IMG/VR virus record: IMGVR_UViG_3300032050_000160
Location: 1 to 57,929 of that record
DNA from: a virus
Direction: 5' to 3' (one strand)
DNA length: 57,929 nucleotides
Made by a program: the position numbers and the translations under genes
In this document: positions 47,402-55,608 of the stretch, in pieces
Numbering within the stretch: position 1 is the stretch's first letter
Layout of the letters: each line of letters starts with the position of its first letter
Notes under the pieces: model-generated
What the model saw: the letters and a program-made list of their open reading frames with translations, nothing else
What the model was told of the DNA's origin: nothing
The model's database searches: none

Positions 47402-50400
47402 TTATACTGCGTCAGACACTTGAGATTGCCATTCTACATCTTTAAAAACAGCATATTCGTAATCTCCAAACCTTAAAGGCCTTGAGTCGTCTATTATTAT
47501 TTTATTTGTTCCTGTATAAGCCTTATATAAATCTGCTGGACTAACTCCATAGTAACTTATTGATGACTGAACTAATACTCCCTGCCAAACATAATAATCA
47601 TTCCAATATTCCCAATCAAAAAGTCCATCTATTGCAAACTTTACCCTTGCCCATGGACGCTTGGATACTGCCTGTATCTCTTGCAAACTTGTTGTTTGAT
47701 AATAAGAAAGATCATCAAAAATAATAGGTCCATTAATCATAATTGAACCTGCATAAGATTTAAAGTTTAAAACGCTAGGGAATCCTATTCCTAACATTGC
47801 CCATTCATTTACATTTAAAACTGGTTCCTTTACTACGTTACCATTTATATAAAAAGATATTCCATTATAAAGAGCACCAGTATTACCATCTATTGCATAA
47901 ATTTTTGCCCTCTTTCCGTCTGGATGATTTGCTACCATATAAAACTTAATTATTTTACCCTTAGAATTAATTTGCATTATTTGGGTTGGTGCATATGGGA
48001 AAAAATCTGAATTAAATCTAATTAAAGATTGCATTGCCATAACTTCATAGTCTGCTGTTTTATTTGCATTAACTGGAATTGCCACTCCACGATTTATTAA
48101 TGGATCATGATTACCTCTAATTTCTAACCCAGAGTATCTTGTTAGGTATAAATAAGGAGAAGAACCCTTATATATTGTTATTGGATTTTTTGCTTTATAG
48201 TTATAATAATAGCCAGTATTTACATATGGATAAACATTAGTTCCAAATCTAGTTCCAATATTGTTCACAGTATTATAATTAAATGCCTGTGATGCTAATT
48301 GTAAACTTTTAATTTTAATTGGCTTATGCTTAATTCCATCTACCTCAAATTCAAGATGCATTACAATTGCTAAATCATTAAAGTCTACATTTTTAGGTGG
48401 ATATATTAAAACATTATCTACAACTTCATACTTAGTATTTATCCAATTACTTCCTGGAGTTATTACTCCATTTTTTGGAACATCTTCTATATTTACAAAA
48501 AATCCATTCGATGCATTAGCGCCAGTCTCTAAGTATTCAAATGTTATGTATGTTTTTAATGTTGCTCCTGTTGTGTCATAAGAATATGTTTTGAGTGATC
48601 TTTCTGCTAAATCTTGATAATTTATATATCCAGTATATAAATAATTATCTAAAGATTCATATGTTCTTTGTTGGGGATATGAATATTCTTGATTTAATTC
48701 TGAATAAGTCCATCCATCTATATCTATTACTTCTGTTTCTTTAAATTTTGCAGGAGCAGGATAGTTAACATTAAATTGTATATAGTCTAATCCAAATCTA
48801 GAATCTCCATACTCATCAGTTATATATTGACCAAAATATGACAGTGGAACATAATCCTTCCAAGAACCCTTTACATCTACATCCAAATAAAAACTATCGA
48901 AATAATTTTTTGGAACTACTCCTAAACTTGGCTTATGGTCAGAAAGTACTACATTTAAAAATTCGTCAGCATCAAAATCAAAAGGATTTTGATAGTTTAT
49001 ATAATAGTTCCAAAAATCTTGATCTGCGTCTCCTCCATCATAGTCTACTCCAGGGCCATATAGATTAAATATATTTTCATAGTCTTTTGGAACTCCGATT
49101 AAATTAAAAAGATTTGAAATATCTTTAACATTTTTTTCTGAACAAAGTGCTACCTTATAAATATTACCAGTAAATGTTTTTGTAAATTCTTTTGTTCCTC
49201 CTACATACATCTTTAATGCCGATTGATTGCTAAAAAAAGACAAAACATTATCACCAAAATAATCTCTAAAAATATCTACTTCTATTCCTACTGCAAACAT
49301 TTTATTGTTTTCTACTGCTAATGCCTCATATAGTATTTGTTCTGAAGCCCCACCATATTTAAAAATATACCTTACATCATTGTTAAAACATTCTATAGAA
49401 AAATAGTTAAAATTAGAATCTTCAATTCTAATTAATACTTGATTTCCAGAATAAGAAAGTGGTTTTTTAAACAATCCATAAAATGCATGAACCCTTTCTC
49501 CAGATAAAGAAAAGTCATTAAAGTATAAATATGAATTGGTTGTATCCCATGATGAGTTAGGCCTTAAATCTAAGAATAGAGAAGATTCATTCTGTATAAC
49601 TGCACAGTCAGCCAGCATATTTACTTGCGTCTTAGAAGTATTATTAGTTACTATTGATGGAACATTAAAATTTGGAGTAGTTAAATAATTTTCTTGAACA
49701 ACTATATTGTCTAAAGAAGCCTGTGACCATGATCCTAAATCGGGATAGTTATAATTTTTTGTATAATCAGCAAACGAATAATCAAATACTACAGAGTTGC
49801 CACCGTAAGAAGCATTAAGATTTTCTGGATACTGAACTCCCTGCCCGTAAACAAATCTTCTTTTTGCAACAAGTAATGGAACTAAATATGTATATAATGC
49901 TACGCAATCTATTTCTATTGGCTCAATATTTTCATAAGCATAAAACCCTATCCAATCTTGACTTTTTCCCAAATTATTAAATGATTCAGGCAAGGATATA
50001 GAGTGTGCATCAATTACAATTGATATAACCTCTTCACCATTTAAAAGAACTGTTGTTAAATTTGATGAATATTTCCAGTGAATAAGCATTGGCCTTTCCC
50101 AATGTCCAACATAATATGAAGAATATTGATTATTAATTTTTAATACTAAAAATGGTCCATTTAAGTATAGTCCGTCAGTAGACGCTATTGGTCCAACAAT
50201 TCTTTTTGACTGTGTGGATGAATTATTGGTTCTAATCCAAAACTCTAAAGTGAAGTCTTGATGCTTTCCATTATTTGACATCATTCCATTTGATGGAACA
50301 ATAAGGGATGGAGAATTGTTATTGCTATATAACTTAGTTATATTCTGAGATCCAAAAACCATTGGCATTCCAAAATTTTTAGCCATTAAAGAGTTGTTAT

Positions 50401-51109
50401 TTACAAAATAGTATCCAGGATTATCTGATAATCCATATGCGCTTGCCTGAACAACTTTAGATGTTGGAAGAGCAATATTTGATGGCAAATCTATAGTTGT
50501 TACACCTAAAGATTGAGATTGAAACTCTTCTGCCCATTGACCAAAAGTAATTCCATTTATATAAAATATATAATCGTTTAAATCTGTAGACTGTCCCAAA
50601 TAATTTATCTTTATAACTAATCTTAATGGTAGATCAGTAGATTCTGGACTAAATGTTTCAGATAAAAAGTACCATCTGCTAGAAAGTGATGCATCATATG
50701 ATTTTAATACATCTATATATTGTTCTTGTGCATCATCATAATATCTATAACCTATATCTATACTTAGTGCATAAGAACTGAGCGTATAAAAATAAGATCC
50801 GATTGAAAAAGTTTTAAGTGTATCATTTAATTGATTTACATTAACTATTTCTGGACTAACTAATGTTACTGAAAATAATCCTTCTGGAACTGCAACTGGA
50901 GTAATTTTATTAATAACACTATCTGGGAATGGTGCATCTAAAAGTTCTTCAGTTACTATAGAAGATCCATTATCAATAGACCAAGTGGAGGTATCTCTTT
51001 GTGCCTCTGAAATTATAGAGACATAATCAGCCTTATCATCAAGTGCCCACAAAAACTGAGGGTGCTCAGAGAATATTTTTTCTGCATATAGATTTGATGG
51101 GCTAGACAT
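47402..51109 (-). CDS. Very large virion protein with LamG/concanavalin-like domains
   Basis: This 1235-aa protein begins MSSPSNLYAEKIFSEHPQFLW, an opening I associate with large structural proteins of actinophages. A LamG-like jelly roll is visible at about 290-420 (DFTLEFWIRTNNSS, then WKYSSNLTTVLLNGEEV). A second repeat at about 560-690 contains VLIRIEDSNFNYFSIECFNN and MYVGGTKEFTKTFTGNIYKV. Many Tyr and Asn residues and beta strands fill the rest. Such domains bind sugars, so it may be a tail spike or head fibre. Position just before the head genes is odd for a tail fibre. Confidence 0.7.
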   Translation of the reverse strand: MSSPSNLYAEKIFSEHPQFLWALDDKADYVSIISEAQRDTSTWSIDNGSSIVTEELLDAPFPDSVINKITPVAVPEGLFSVTLVSPEIVNVNQLNDTLKTFSIGSYFYTLSSYALSIDIGYRYYDDAQEQYIDVLKSYDASLSSRWYFLSETFSPESTDLPLRLVIKINYLGQSTDLNDYIFYINGITFGQWAEEFQSQSLGVTTIDLPSNIALPTSKVVQASAYGLSDNPGYYFVNNNSLMAKNFGMPMVFGSQNITKLYSNNNSPSLIVPSNGMMSNNGKHQDFTLEFWIRTNNSSTQSKRIVGPIASTDGLYLNGPFLVLKINNQYSSYYVGHWERPMLIHWKYSSNLTTVLLNGEEVISIVIDAHSISLPESFNNLGKSQDWIGFYAYENIEPIEIDCVALYTYLVPLLVAKRRFVYGQGVQYPENLNASYGGNSVVFDYSFADYTKNYNYPDLGSWSQASLDNIVVQENYLTTPNFNVPSIVTNNTSKTQVNMLADCAVIQNESSLFLDLRPNSSWDTTNSYLYFNDFSLSGERVHAFYGLFKKPLSYSGNQVLIRIEDSNFNYFSIECFNNDVRYIFKYGGASEQILYEALAVENNKMFAVGIEVDIFRDYFGDNVLSFFSNQSALKMYVGGTKEFTKTFTGNIYKVALCSEKNVKDISNLFNLIGVPKDYENIFNLYGPGVDYDGGDADQDFWNYYINYQNPFDFDADEFLNVVLSDHKPSLGVVPKNYFDSFYLDVDVKGSWKDYVPLSYFGQYITDEYGDSRFGLDYIQFNVNYPAPAKFKETEVIDIDGWTYSELNQEYSYPQQRTYESLDNYLYTGYINYQDLAERSLKTYSYDTTGATLKTYITFEYLETGANASNGFFVNIEDVPKNGVITPGSNWINTKYEVVDNVLIYPPKNVDFNDLAIVMHLEFEVDGIKHKPIKIKSLQLASQAFNYNTVNNIGTRFGTNVYPYVNTGYYYNYKAKNPITIYKGSSPYLYLTRYSGLEIRGNHDPLINRGVAIPVNANKTADYEVMAMQSLIRFNSDFFPYAPTQIMQINSKGKIIKFYMVANHPDGKRAKIYAIDGNTGALYNGISFYINGNVVKEPVLNVNEWAMLGIGFPSVLNFKSYAGSIMINGPIIFDDLSYYQTTSLQEIQAVSKRPWARVKFAIDGLFDWEYWNDYYVWQGVLVQSSISYYGVSPADLYKAYTGTNKIIIDDSRPLRFGDYEYAVFKDVEWQSQVSDAV

Positions 51110-53248: not shown

Positions 53249-53995
53249 TTAGATGTAACTCTTTTTTTTCCACATCATTCTTCGATAACCAGAATTAAAT
53301 ACTGATCTTACTTTGTTTACTATCTCTTTTACTTTTTCATTTTCTTTTTGATCTTTAATAATTTCAGAAACAAAGTCTTGTCTCATAAAAGGTATTACCT
53401 GAACCAATGGAGTTCCTTTTTGAACATATCCTCTAAAATCTTTTTTAACTAAAAATGATAGCAAACCATCAGATGGATAAGAATCAATATCTATAACTGC
53501 AGAAACCGCATATAACGGGGATACTTCGTGATGTTGTGGTTGTATAAAAAATGCACTTACTCCTTTACTTCCTTTTGCAACCCAGATAGGATTGATTCTA
53601 AAAATATGCTCAATATATTGATCTTTGTCTATTGGATAACCTTCTACTTGCTTAATATCATGAGTTCCTATCATTGGTTTTATACCAGAATTAGAAAATG
53701 ATTCCATTGCCTTTGGAATTTGAAAAACTTGTTTTCCATCAGTAGTATCAATATATATATCAAATGGTGCCTTAATTATGTACCCGCTTGAAAGCATATC
53801 TAAAAATGCAACGCACCTTTTAACAGTTAATCTTTGTACACCATCGATTGGCGTATCATTACCTTCATAAAAAGGTAGAATTTTTTTAAACCAGGATGGT
53901 ATTTCTTTGAATGCTGGAACTGGTTCTGGAAATAAATCTACAGTTTTTGGCATTGTAGATACAAATGATATTTTTGCAGATTTGTCTTTACTCAT
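53249..53995 (-). CDS. Conserved phage protein of unknown function
   Basis: This 248-aa protein contains PAFKEIPSWFKKILPFYEG, then VKRCVAFLDMLSSGYIIKAP, FRINPIWVAKGSKGVSAFFI and HHEVSPLYAVSAVIDIDSYP, and ends in a basic C-terminus (MMWKKKSYI). The combination SWFKK...CVAFLDMLSSGYII recurs, as I recall, in uncharacterised proteins of environmental phages. It lies between the ribonucleotide reductase and fibre genes. It has a leaderless-type promoter. No motif gives a reaction. Confidence 0.65.
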   Translation of the reverse strand: MSKDKSAKISFVSTMPKTVDLFPEPVPAFKEIPSWFKKILPFYEGNDTPIDGVQRLTVKRCVAFLDMLSSGYIIKAPFDIYIDTTDGKQVFQIPKAMESFSNSGIKPMIGTHDIKQVEGYPIDKDQYIEHIFRINPIWVAKGSKGVSAFFIQPQHHEVSPLYAVSAVIDIDSYPSDGLLSFLVKKDFRGYVQKGTPLVQVIPFMRQDFVSEIIKDQKENEKVKEIVNKVRSVFNSGYRRMMWKKKSYI

Positions 53996-54030: not shown

Positions 54031-55608
54031 TTAGACTAGCGGATCTGGTCTATCAAATACTAACATCTTCTTAGTAAAGAAGTTATCATATGGCTCACAG
54101 TTAATAGATATCTTATTTAGATCCATATTTATTGTCTCTACCAAGGTTATATCAACAAAAGATCCAGTTTCTGGCGAAAAGATCTTATAACTTGTATCAA
54201 TATCTGCAGCACTTATAAATTTAGTTGCTGCTCCCTTTTGTACTAAAATATAGTGTGTTGTAGAGAATAAATCTCCATCAACATATATAAATTGGGATTC
54301 AGGAACAGTAGTCAAAGAAACAATCTGAGTTTCTACAATATCTTCAGAACTTAATGATAGAGTAGAAGAATCTACCTCCCAATTAACCCAATCTGAGTTT
54401 CCTGGATTTGGAATATTAAGTGCTAATAATGTATCTCCAACCTGTAATTCTCCAGCAGTCTTAGAAGAACCTGGTGCTCCAGGAATTAGAACTTCAGTTG
54501 TTGCTGCTAACGATATAGCAGAAAAAGCATATGCTCCGAATGCACCGAAGGCACCGAATGCACCGAACGCACCGAATGCACCGAAGGCACCGAAGGCACC
54601 GAATGCACCGAATGCACCGAAGGCACCGAAGGCACCGAATGCACCGAACGCACCGAACGCACCGAATGCGCCGAATGCACCGAACGCACCGAAGGCTCCA
54701 AACGGAGCAAAGCCGAATGGTGCAAATGAAAATGTTGTAACTGATCCAGAATTTGATGATGTTCCAGAAACTCCATTTGCATTGTCTGCTCTAACATTAT
54801 AAGTTTGTGCAGTTCCGCATTCCTGAGAAACAGTAACAGATGTGCTTCCTGTATTTCCAGATTTTCCGTCAGATGATGTCCAGTAATAATTTGTAATTGC
54901 CTTACCGCCATTATTAGGAGCATTCCAAGATACTGAATCATTACATTGATTTGCTATAGTGGATGCTGAAGGAGCACCTGGTGTATCTGGAACAGTTGTG
55001 ATAAGTATTCCACTAGATGCTGATGATGCTGCAGATGTTCCATTAGCGTTAGTTGCTGTAACAGTAAATGTCTGTGTTGATCCAGAGGAAAGTCCTGTTA
55101 CTGTTAATGGGGATGATGATCCTCCAATAGAAGGACCAGCACTTGCAGTTGCTGTATAAGAACTAATTGCCTTACCACCAGTTGCACCTGCACTAAAGTT
55201 AACAGTTGCAGCACCATTATTGAAAGGACGATTTGTTCCAACGTCAGCAACTGAAGAAATTGAAGGTGCTTGTGGAACAGTTGTTGCAGTAATAGAGTTA
55301 GATGCGCTTGATGGGCTTCCAGTTCCTGCTGCATTTGTTCCTGTAACTGTAAAGGTATATGAAGTATTAGACTGCAGACCTGTTACTGTTATTGGAGAAG
55401 ATGCACCTGTTGCAGTGTACCCTCCTGGAGAAGATGTAACTGTGTAAGATGTCGCTGCGTTAGGTCCAGTTGGAGTAAATGTTACTGTTGCAGCACCATT
55501 ATTATATGCTCTTCCTGTTCCAACATCTGTTGCTGTTCCTATCGTTGGTGCATAAGGTGCCAAAAAGTCATTTGCACTTTGGCTCATTCTACCTGCTTGC
55601 TTTGACAT
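54031..55608 (-). CDS. Fibronectin-III fibre protein with GAF repeat and degenerate Hint-like C-terminus
   Basis: This 525-aa virion protein has three fibronectin type III domains (about 17-110, 112-205, 208-295; each with TSYTFTVTGTN- or QTFTVTATN-like strands). A run of some eighteen Gly-Ala-Phe repeats follows (about 303-360), then a region resembling a Hint (hedgehog/intein) fold. The latter has TTEVLIPG, AGELQVGDTLLALNIP, VDGDLFSTTHYILVQKG and ISINCEPYDNFFTKKMLVFD. The usual first Cys is not present (SLAATTEV), and the final His-Asn is replaced by Phe-Asp, so self-splicing is unlikely. AAAGGAG precedes the ATG. Confidence 0.75.
   Translation of the reverse strand: MSKQAGRMSQSANDFLAPYAPTIGTATDVGTGRAYNNGAATVTFTPTGPNAATSYTVTSSPGGYTATGASSPITVTGLQSNTSYTFTVTGTNAAGTGSPSSASNSITATTVPQAPSISSVADVGTNRPFNNGAATVNFSAGATGGKAISSYTATASAGPSIGGSSSPLTVTGLSSGSTQTFTVTATNANGTSAASSASSGILITTVPDTPGAPSASTIANQCNDSVSWNAPNNGGKAITNYYWTSSDGKSGNTGSTSVTVSQECGTAQTYNVRADNANGVSGTSSNSGSVTTFSFAPFGFAPFGAFGAFGAFGAFGAFGAFGAFGAFGAFGAFGAFGAFGAFGAFGAFGAFGAFGAFGAYAFSAISLAATTEVLIPGAPGSSKTAGELQVGDTLLALNIPNPGNSDWVNWEVDSSTLSLSSEDIVETQIVSLTTVPESQFIYVDGDLFSTTHYILVQKGAATKFISAADIDTSYKIFSPETGSFVDITLVETINMDLNKISINCEPYDNFFTKKMLVFDRPDPLV
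54531..54699. repeat. 9-bp minisatellite encoding Gly-Ala-Phe repeats
   Basis: About eighteen tandem 9-bp units, read on the minus strand as GGT GCN TTC, lie in the fibre gene at 54031-55608. Variation is almost confined to the third base of the Ala codon (A, C or G), while GGT and TTC stay constant. The array keeps the reading frame; unit gain or loss would change the protein by three residues. Confidence 0.9.

What the first reader, a model, noticed from the sequence alone, without database searches (positions are those of the whole stretch)
54531..54699. Gly-Ala-Phe minisatellite with variation limited to one synonymous base
About eighteen 9-bp units keep GGT and TTC fixed, while the Ala third base is A, C or G. 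This points to active expansion and contraction or homogenising recombination, with selection on the protein. The repeat links the Fn3 domains to the Hint-like domain, so changes in copy number would alter fibre length.
Basis: seen in the sequence. Interest (0 to 1): 0.55.

Follow-up and report, generated by a model that had tools for sequence, protein, structure and literature searches.

The report
Repeat linker before phage Hint domain
A bacterial virus carries a tail-fibre-like protein in which a short repeat (Gly-Ala-Phe, eighteen times) ties a stack of binding-type domains to a domain shaped like a self-cutting protein element; the repeat length differs between related viruses but not between the near-identical ones compared.

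Summary
The array is real: 18 in-frame Gly-Ala-Phe units (54538-54699, minus strand). TTC is fixed (18 of 18), GGT nearly so (16 of 18), Ala ends in A8/C6/G4/T0. It is the linker of a 525-aa tail-fibre-like protein: Fn3-type stack, linker predicted disordered, C-terminal domain with a confident Hint (intein/hedgehog) fold. Ser366 sits at the nucleophile position, the block-B His is present, Asp519 stands where inteins have the terminal Asn. Ser is kept in 105 of 105 distinct relatives, Asp in 97 of 103.

Relatives carry arrays of 4-25 units, or wholly different repeats (FTPFGF, FFPPFFP, GFSHYAG, PVGS) at the same place. Thirteen of 13 compared pairs with flanks at least 98.3% identical have identical arrays; of nine more diverged pairs seven differ in copy number and all nine in codons. 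Copy number evolves, but no sign of active strain-level change was found. Protein-level selection is supported.

Most likely reading: a disordered spacer placed right before a self-cleaving (B-type-BIL-like) Hint module, so that it may end up as the mature fibre's C-terminal tail rather than an internal shaft. Cleavage is inferred, not shown.

The parts
54031..55608 (-). Tail-fibre-like protein, 525 aa: Fn3-type stack, Gly-Ala-Phe linker, C-terminal Hint-fold domain
   Evidence: the ORF listing; Pfam fn3 E 2.4e-12; PHROG minor tail / tail fiber matches, weak; AF2 full length
54760..55545 (-). Fn3-type beta-sandwich stack, residues about 22-283 (two Pfam fn3 stretches; the strand pattern suggests three modules)
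54514..54720 (-). Low-complexity linker, residues 297-365, predicted disordered
   Evidence: AF2 pLDDT under 50 for residues 297-363
54538..54699 (-). 18 Gly-Ala-Phe units, 9 bp each
54052..54513 (-). Hint-fold domain, Ser366 to Asp519
   Evidence: AF2 pLDDT 90.8; Foldseek best hit 6y75 E 4.5e-7; VIA-align Z 17.9, rmsd 2.1, 138 aligned
54511..54513 (-). Ser366, structural position 1 (nucleophile position) of the Hint fold; the predicted cleavage site lies just before it
   Evidence: model residue 9 aligns to residue 1 of Mtu RecA intein 2in0 and to 258 of hedgehog 1at0; Ser in 105 of 105 distinct domains
54253..54255 (-). His452, block-B-type [ST]xxH histidine
54052..54054 (-). Asp519, at the position of the terminal Asn of inteins
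   Evidence: model residue 162 aligns to residue 440 of 2in0; Asp in 97 of 103 distinct domains that have a letter there
53249..53995 (-). Downstream gene of the phrog_7084 family (function unknown), a frequent neighbour of these fibre genes
   Evidence: phrog_7084 E 6.9e-39; a homologue within 3 kb downstream in 67 of 89 loci

Best explanation
The array encodes a disordered Gly-Ala-Phe spacer in a phage tail-fibre-like protein. It is kept as protein by purifying selection, while its DNA units are duplicated, lost and homogenised over evolutionary (not strain-level) time. It lies directly before a C-terminal Hint-fold domain with an intact nucleophile Ser and block-B His but Asp in place of the terminal Asn. 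The likely working order is: the fibre folds; Hint performs an N-to-O acyl shift at Ser366 and the bond is hydrolysed or transferred; the Fn3 part keeps the Gly-Ala-Phe run as its C-terminal tail and the Hint module leaves. The linker is also where different N-terminal parts and Hint modules have been joined during phage evolution. Shown by computation: array, Hint fold, residue conservation, synonymous-only variation, copy-number differences among relatives, module junctions at the linker. Inferred: cleavage, its products, and what the tail does.
For: Hint fold: AF2 pLDDT 90.8, pTM 0.86; best matches are BIL2 6y75 (Z 17.9), inteins, and hedgehog 1at0 (Z 17.2); sequence profile best hit a bacterial intein-like domain 2lwy, E 0.0038. 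Conservation in 105 distinct domains: Ser1 105, block-B His 104 of 104 with a letter, terminal Asp 97 of 103. The first 42 domains were picked with a pattern that required Ser, but the loci were found through other stretches, mostly the far end of the domain. Linker disordered: pLDDT 26-32 across the array. Protein-level selection: 32/0 and 30/0 third-base versus other differences in two pairs of pure arrays. Turnover: L046/L050, both 24 copies, differ at 32 of 72 third positions while their Hint DNA is 99.8% identical; L029/L043, both 20 copies, differ at 30 of 60 with Hint DNA 98.7% identical. Module joining: L133 and L137 share 446 bp after Ser1 (the Hint module up to the Asp codon) plus 74 bp of linker with 2 mismatches, and are unrelated on both sides.
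Against: No cleavage was observed and no catalytic geometry was measured; Hint domains can be inactive. Terminal Asp makes the usual Asn cyclisation impossible, so full splicing is unlikely. Copy numbers come from metagenome assemblies; arrays longer than a read could be mis-assembled, although identical arrays recur in separately numbered records. The window's own array shows no significant block duplication. Junction evidence rests on few loci, and L134 could itself be an assembly chimera across the shared 520 bp.
Confidence: 0.55

Rival explanations
1. The Hint domain is catalytically dead and stays on the fibre as a structural or receptor-binding cap; the array is then an internal flexible spacer whose length sets the reach of the cap.
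For: Terminal Asn is replaced (97 Asp of 103); linkers are predicted disordered; array lengths in the family cover 4-25 units.
Against: Ser1 and the block-B His, which a mere cap would not need, are unchanged in 105 of 105 and 104 of 104 domains, while the residue just before Ser1 varies freely.
Confidence: 0.3
2. The array is a hypermutable minisatellite that switches fibre length within a population.
For: Copy number differs in seven of nine diverged pairs and codon order is scrambled between pairs with near-identical adjacent Hint DNA.
Against: Thirteen of 13 near-identical pairs keep copy number and codon order; a 9-bp unit keeps the frame, so it could not switch the gene off.
Confidence: 0.08
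3. Adenine-specific mutagenesis by a diversity-generating retroelement: the unit GGTGCATTC has exactly one A, at the variable base, and the neighbouring gene has an Mtd N-terminal domain.
For: Position of the variable base; Mtd_N match in the next gene, E 2.6e-14.
Against: No second copy of the array in the record; other arrays vary at Gly3 and Phe3, where there is no A in the usual unit, and Ala3 is T in 116 of the 750 units of all 71 arrays scanned. No reverse transcriptase turned up in the ten larger proteins scanned with Pfam (not all genes were scanned).
Confidence: 0.02
4. Only shared ancestry: the array is an old neutral linker with no length or sequence role.
For: Linker type has changed at least 13 times on the Hint tree, so no single sequence is needed.
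Against: Amino acids are held while third bases scramble; most linkers stay low-complexity and Phe-rich.
Confidence: 0.05

Closest known systems
B-type bacterial intein-like (BIL) domains
   Same: Hint fold; nucleophile and block-B motif present, intein C-terminal motif absent; N-terminal cleavage is the known activity of the type (review PMC7765530, passages read)
   Different: Here at the C-terminus of a phage fibre-like protein, Ser as residue 1, conserved Asp at the end, low-complexity repeat directly before the cleavage position; activity untested
Tail proteins with C-terminal Hint/intein domain in named phages (Phage NCTB SBV38305.1, Alcaligenes phage Afa-NA1 XUE01657.1)
   Same: Repeat-containing tail protein ending in a Hint-like domain, in a cluster of tail fibre genes
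   Different: Their repeats are collagen-like Gly-X-Y and lie before another domain; residue 1 appears to be Cys and the end His-Asn by inspection; only 28% and 23% identity to members of this family, the Afa-NA1 match at E 0.9
S74 / intramolecular chaperone autocleavage domains of phage fibres and spikes
   Same: Self-removing domain on tail proteins with low-complexity content (PMC7824862, passages read)
   Different: Unrelated chemistry as described there (Ser/Lys); the fold here is Hint
Collagen-like prophage tail fibres of E. coli (EPcl proteins)
   Same: Triplet repeats in a phage fibre with lengths differing in multiples of three residues between proteins, modular recombination (PMC3368898, passages read)
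   Different: Those form collagen stalks; here no Pro, Gly replaced by Ser/Ala/Asn in many relatives, and Pfam Collagen scores below its cut-off

Membership tests
Hint superfamily (intein/hedgehog fold) | Hint fold | tested here: met
   AF2 pLDDT 90.8; Foldseek 6y75 E 4.5e-7; VIA Z 17.9 over 138 residues
Hint superfamily (intein/hedgehog fold) | Nucleophile Cys/Ser at position 1 | tested here: met
   Ser in 105 of 105 distinct domains; aligns to residue 1 of 2in0. One of 303 HMM hits had a gap there and was dropped
Hint superfamily (intein/hedgehog fold) | Block B TxxH | tested here: met
   His in 88 of 88 with a letter; Ser or Thr three before it in 83 of 88
Splicing intein | C-terminal His-Asn and a following C-extein | tested here: not met
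   Terminal residue Asp 97, Asn 4, Glu 2 of 103; in the window six residues follow Asp519
B-type BIL domain | Intein motifs except the C-terminal one; N-terminal autocleavage | not testable with these tools
   Motif part met; cleavage needs an experiment
Hedgehog Hog domain | Sterol-recognition region after Hint | tested here: not met
   Protein ends six residues after Asp519
Collagen-like repeat | Pfam Collagen above its curated cut-off | tested here: not met
   22.3 bits against cut-off 27.2
Diversity-generating retroelement target | Template repeat in the genome and A-only variation | tested here: not met
   No second array copy in the record, which may be a fragment; variation also at non-A positions in the window's own array (GGC) and in relatives
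Contingency / phase-variable repeat | Copy-number change among near-identical genomes | tested here: not met
   0 of 13 compared pairs with flanks at least 98.3% identical differ; assemblies, not reads

The most novel reading that the evidence does not exclude
A large, uncharacterised family of aquatic phage fibre proteins uses a Ser-type Hint domain to trim itself right after an interchangeable low-complexity linker, so that the linker becomes the fibre's mature C-terminal tail (or is handed to another molecule by transesterification); the tail chemistry is swapped as a module and, when it is proline-rich, is accompanied by 2OG-Fe(II) oxygenases (and in a few cases PF11397 GlcNAc transferases) that modify it.
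Probability: 0.2. Interest if true: 0.7.

Novelty: new variant of a known kind. Interest (0 to 1): 0.4.

Why it matters
Phage fibres decide which bacteria are infected. A widespread fibre family that ends in a Hint domain with an unchanged nucleophile but without the intein end motif suggests self-trimming of virion proteins by intein-like chemistry, next to a linker that phages exchange freely. That gives a simple laboratory test (does the chain break before Ser366?). The minisatellite itself is ordinary: a repeat-coded linker that evolves by unit turnover.

Tried and rejected
Diversity-generating retroelement: rejected for lack of a second array copy and because arrays vary at positions without A. 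Phase variation: 0 of 13 near-identical pairs differ. Gene-level codon selection as the cause of the TTC/GCC use: the rest of the same gene uses TTT 16 of 20 and GCA 39 of 52, and FxPF linkers of relatives prefer TTT (TTC 19 of 141) while GAF arrays prefer TTC (554 of 749), so codons look unit-specific, as expected if units are copied from a founder. mRNA folding: permuting the units does not change the energy (-62.8 against mean -62.9), so no sign that the order of Ala codons is tuned. Named phages: whole protein no match at 1e-5 in 50,697 records; the Hint domain alone finds one weak record and another member two at E 0.9. Bacterial genomes: 18 pattern matches, none a relative. Literature: no paper on this family found in the searches (open-licence full texts only; mostly only the listings were read).

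Linker-enzyme link, told in full because it weakened: in the first 89 loci, looking 3 kb downstream, oxygenase neighbours occurred in 18 of 18 FFP/PPF linkers and 4 of 5 other linkers (three of these four, and the miss, Pro-rich repeats by eye), and in 0 of 66 GAF, FxPF and FSHY linkers; over whole loci 4 of 50 GAF loci also had one. In the larger set (91 loci, 4 kb either side) it was 26 of 32 loci with linkers of 20% Pro or more against 6 of 59 below. Independent pairs on starred branches of the Hint tree: 4.7 of 5 the same way in the first tree (p 0.0625), but only 2.9 of 5, with 0.3 the other way, in the larger one (median p 0.25). So it is not established once ancestry is taken into account.

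Rows dropped: of the 71 array-bearing sequences (window plus 70), 57 carry the Hint domain by HMM and 14 do not (truncated or unrelated proteins); array counts use the 57 (44 distinct). The pairs were chosen by hand from the list; redundant pairs (such as L034/L074) were left out, and the last pair (L090/L091) repeats L020/L046 and was not counted. In one search one hit with a gap at the Ser column was dropped, as were, for the linker count, domains with under 60 residues before Ser1 or under 130 after it, and loci with under 2.5 kb downstream unless an oxygenase was seen (103 distinct, 91 used); this last exception favours the oxygenase count.

Full report
Observation. The minus strand of the window carries, in frame with the 525-aa ORF 54031-55608, 18 perfect Gly-Ala-Phe units at 54538-54699 and an imperfect Gly-Ala-Tyr unit after them. 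TTC is used in 18 of 18, GGT in 16 of 18, and the Ala third base is A8, C6, G4, T0. The array stands far outside chance: period-9 self-match 0.90 against at most 0.50 elsewhere in the window and 0.43 in Markov windows.

Where it sits. The ORF has Fn3 matches (Pfam, E 2.4e-12, two stretches) and weak PHROG matches to minor tail and tail fibre proteins. The next gene is a tail fibre protein with an Mtd N-terminal domain. Elsewhere the record has a PhageMin_Tail (tape-measure-type) protein, portal, DNA polymerase III alpha, DnaB-type helicase, RecA and a B12-type ribonucleotide reductase: a tailed phage. AlphaFold on 18 aligned relatives gives a well-folded Fn3-type part, residues 297-363 under pLDDT 50, and a folded C-terminal domain.

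The C-terminal domain is a Hint fold. Predicted alone on 42 aligned sequences it reaches pLDDT 90.8. The best PDB matches are BIL2, inteins and hedgehog (Foldseek E 4.5e-7; VIA Z up to 17.9). The Mtu RecA intein 2in0 aligns its residues 1-440 to model residues 9-162: Ser366 of the protein is at the nucleophile position and Asp519 at the terminal Asn. Pfam alone did not find it in the window protein; Hint_2 appears in 9 of 42 members, weakly. In 105 distinct domains Ser1 is kept in 105, the block-B His in 104 of 104 with a letter, and the end is Asp 97, Asn 4, Glu 2 of 103. The first 42 domains were selected with a pattern that demanded Ser; the later ones were found by other stretches, so the conservation is not only a result of selection.

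The family and its linkers. A scan for coding DNA of four Gly-Ala-Phe units in a row found 70 viral stretches; 56 of these and the window carry both array and Hint, with 44 distinct arrays of 4-25 units. The same place holds quite different low-complexity linkers in other relatives: FTPFGF, FFPPFFP, PPFPPPF, GFSHYAG, PVGS, NPV, PTPTATPTP, NPPPYYNP. On the Hint tree linker type needs at least 13 changes.

How the array evolves. Thirteen of 13 compared pairs with flanks at least 98.3% identical keep copy number and codon order. The window's near-identical partner record overlaps it by 12,283 bp without a mismatch, array included. Among nine more diverged pairs, seven differ in copy number by 1-3 units and all nine differ in codons. 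In L046/L050 (24 copies each) 32 of 72 third bases differ and no others; in L029/L043 (20 each) 30 of 60, although adjacent Hint DNA is 99.8 and 98.7% identical. So units turn over faster than their surroundings on longer time scales, under a protein constraint, and copy number moves little meanwhile. Significant block repetition is seen in 11 of 34 arrays, not in the window's.

Codons. Array codons do not follow the genome: TTC 18 of 18 against 121 of 711 elsewhere; no GCT against 30% elsewhere. In 40 of 44 distinct arrays TTC is commoner than in the rest of the locus (the background there is a crude set of open frames). FxPF linkers go the other way. The simplest reading is copying from founder units.

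Module joining at the linker. L133 and L137 share the Hint module from 74 bp inside the linker to the terminal Asp codon with two mismatches, and are unrelated on both sides; L134 joins the left side of one to the right side of the other and may be real or an assembly chimera. Of 82 pairs with Hint DNA at least 80% identical and both flanks measurable, 8 have both flanks below 60%, 10 only the upstream one with downstream at least 70%, 4 the reverse, 32 both at least 70%, the rest between (shuffled control mean 0.46).

Mechanism. B-type BIL domains have the intein motifs except the C-terminal one and cleave at their N-terminal side (review PMC7765530, passages read). This domain has that motif set. 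If active, it would release the Fn3 part with the repeat as its C-terminus. A close precedent in role is the S74 domain of phage fibres, which cleaves itself off proteins with low-complexity content (PMC7824862, passages read). Named phages NCTB and Afa-NA1 have tail proteins that end in Hint-like domains, with Cys and His-Asn by inspection. Cleavage in this family is not shown.

Neighbours. A phrog_7084-type gene lies within 3 kb downstream in 67 of 89 loci; it has no Pfam match at 0.1 in the window and no PDB sequence match; one member matches DUF6065 below cut-off. Loci with proline-rich linkers tend to have 2OG-Fe(II) oxygenases nearby (26 of 32 against 6 of 59), but the link is not significant after correction for ancestry. 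The window record has none, and Gly-Ala-Phe offers no proline to hydroxylate.

Verdict. A real but ordinary repeat-coded linker; the more interesting thing is what it leads into.

Noticed in passing
L126, L128, L138, L144, L149, L003, L004, L109, L163 and others (near the Hint fibre gene): Proline-rich linkers tend to come with 2OG-Fe(II) oxygenase genes (PF13640) nearby: 26 of 32 against 6 of 59 loci; not significant once ancestry is corrected for.
   Followed up: partly
L098 and L109 (L099, L100 similar): PF11397 GlcNAc-transferase-type genes downstream of Thr/Pro-rich or mixed linkers, in L109 together with an oxygenase; recalls hydroxyproline glycosylation of Skp1 (recalled, no call).
   Followed up: partly
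window 53249-53995 and 67 of 89 related loci: phrog_7084-type gene of unknown function close downstream of the Hint fibre gene in most loci.
   Followed up: partly
L133, L134, L137: Hint module shared as an almost identical cassette of about 520 bp between otherwise unrelated surroundings, ending at the terminal Asp codon.
   Followed up: partly
window 54538-54699: Codons of the array (TTC always, GCC/GCG often, never GCT) run against the codon use of the genome and of the same gene; the same holds for most arrays of relatives, but not for FxPF linkers.
   Followed up: partly
contigs IMGVR_UViG_3300032240_001667 and IMGVR_UViG_3300032326_001363: Two Hint fibre genes in one phage contig (L103/L109; L152/L158), so copies within a genome could exchange modules.
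   Followed up: no
window 47402-51109: 1235-aa protein near the fibre cluster with only weak lectin-type matches (Laminin_G_3 below cut-off).
   Followed up: no
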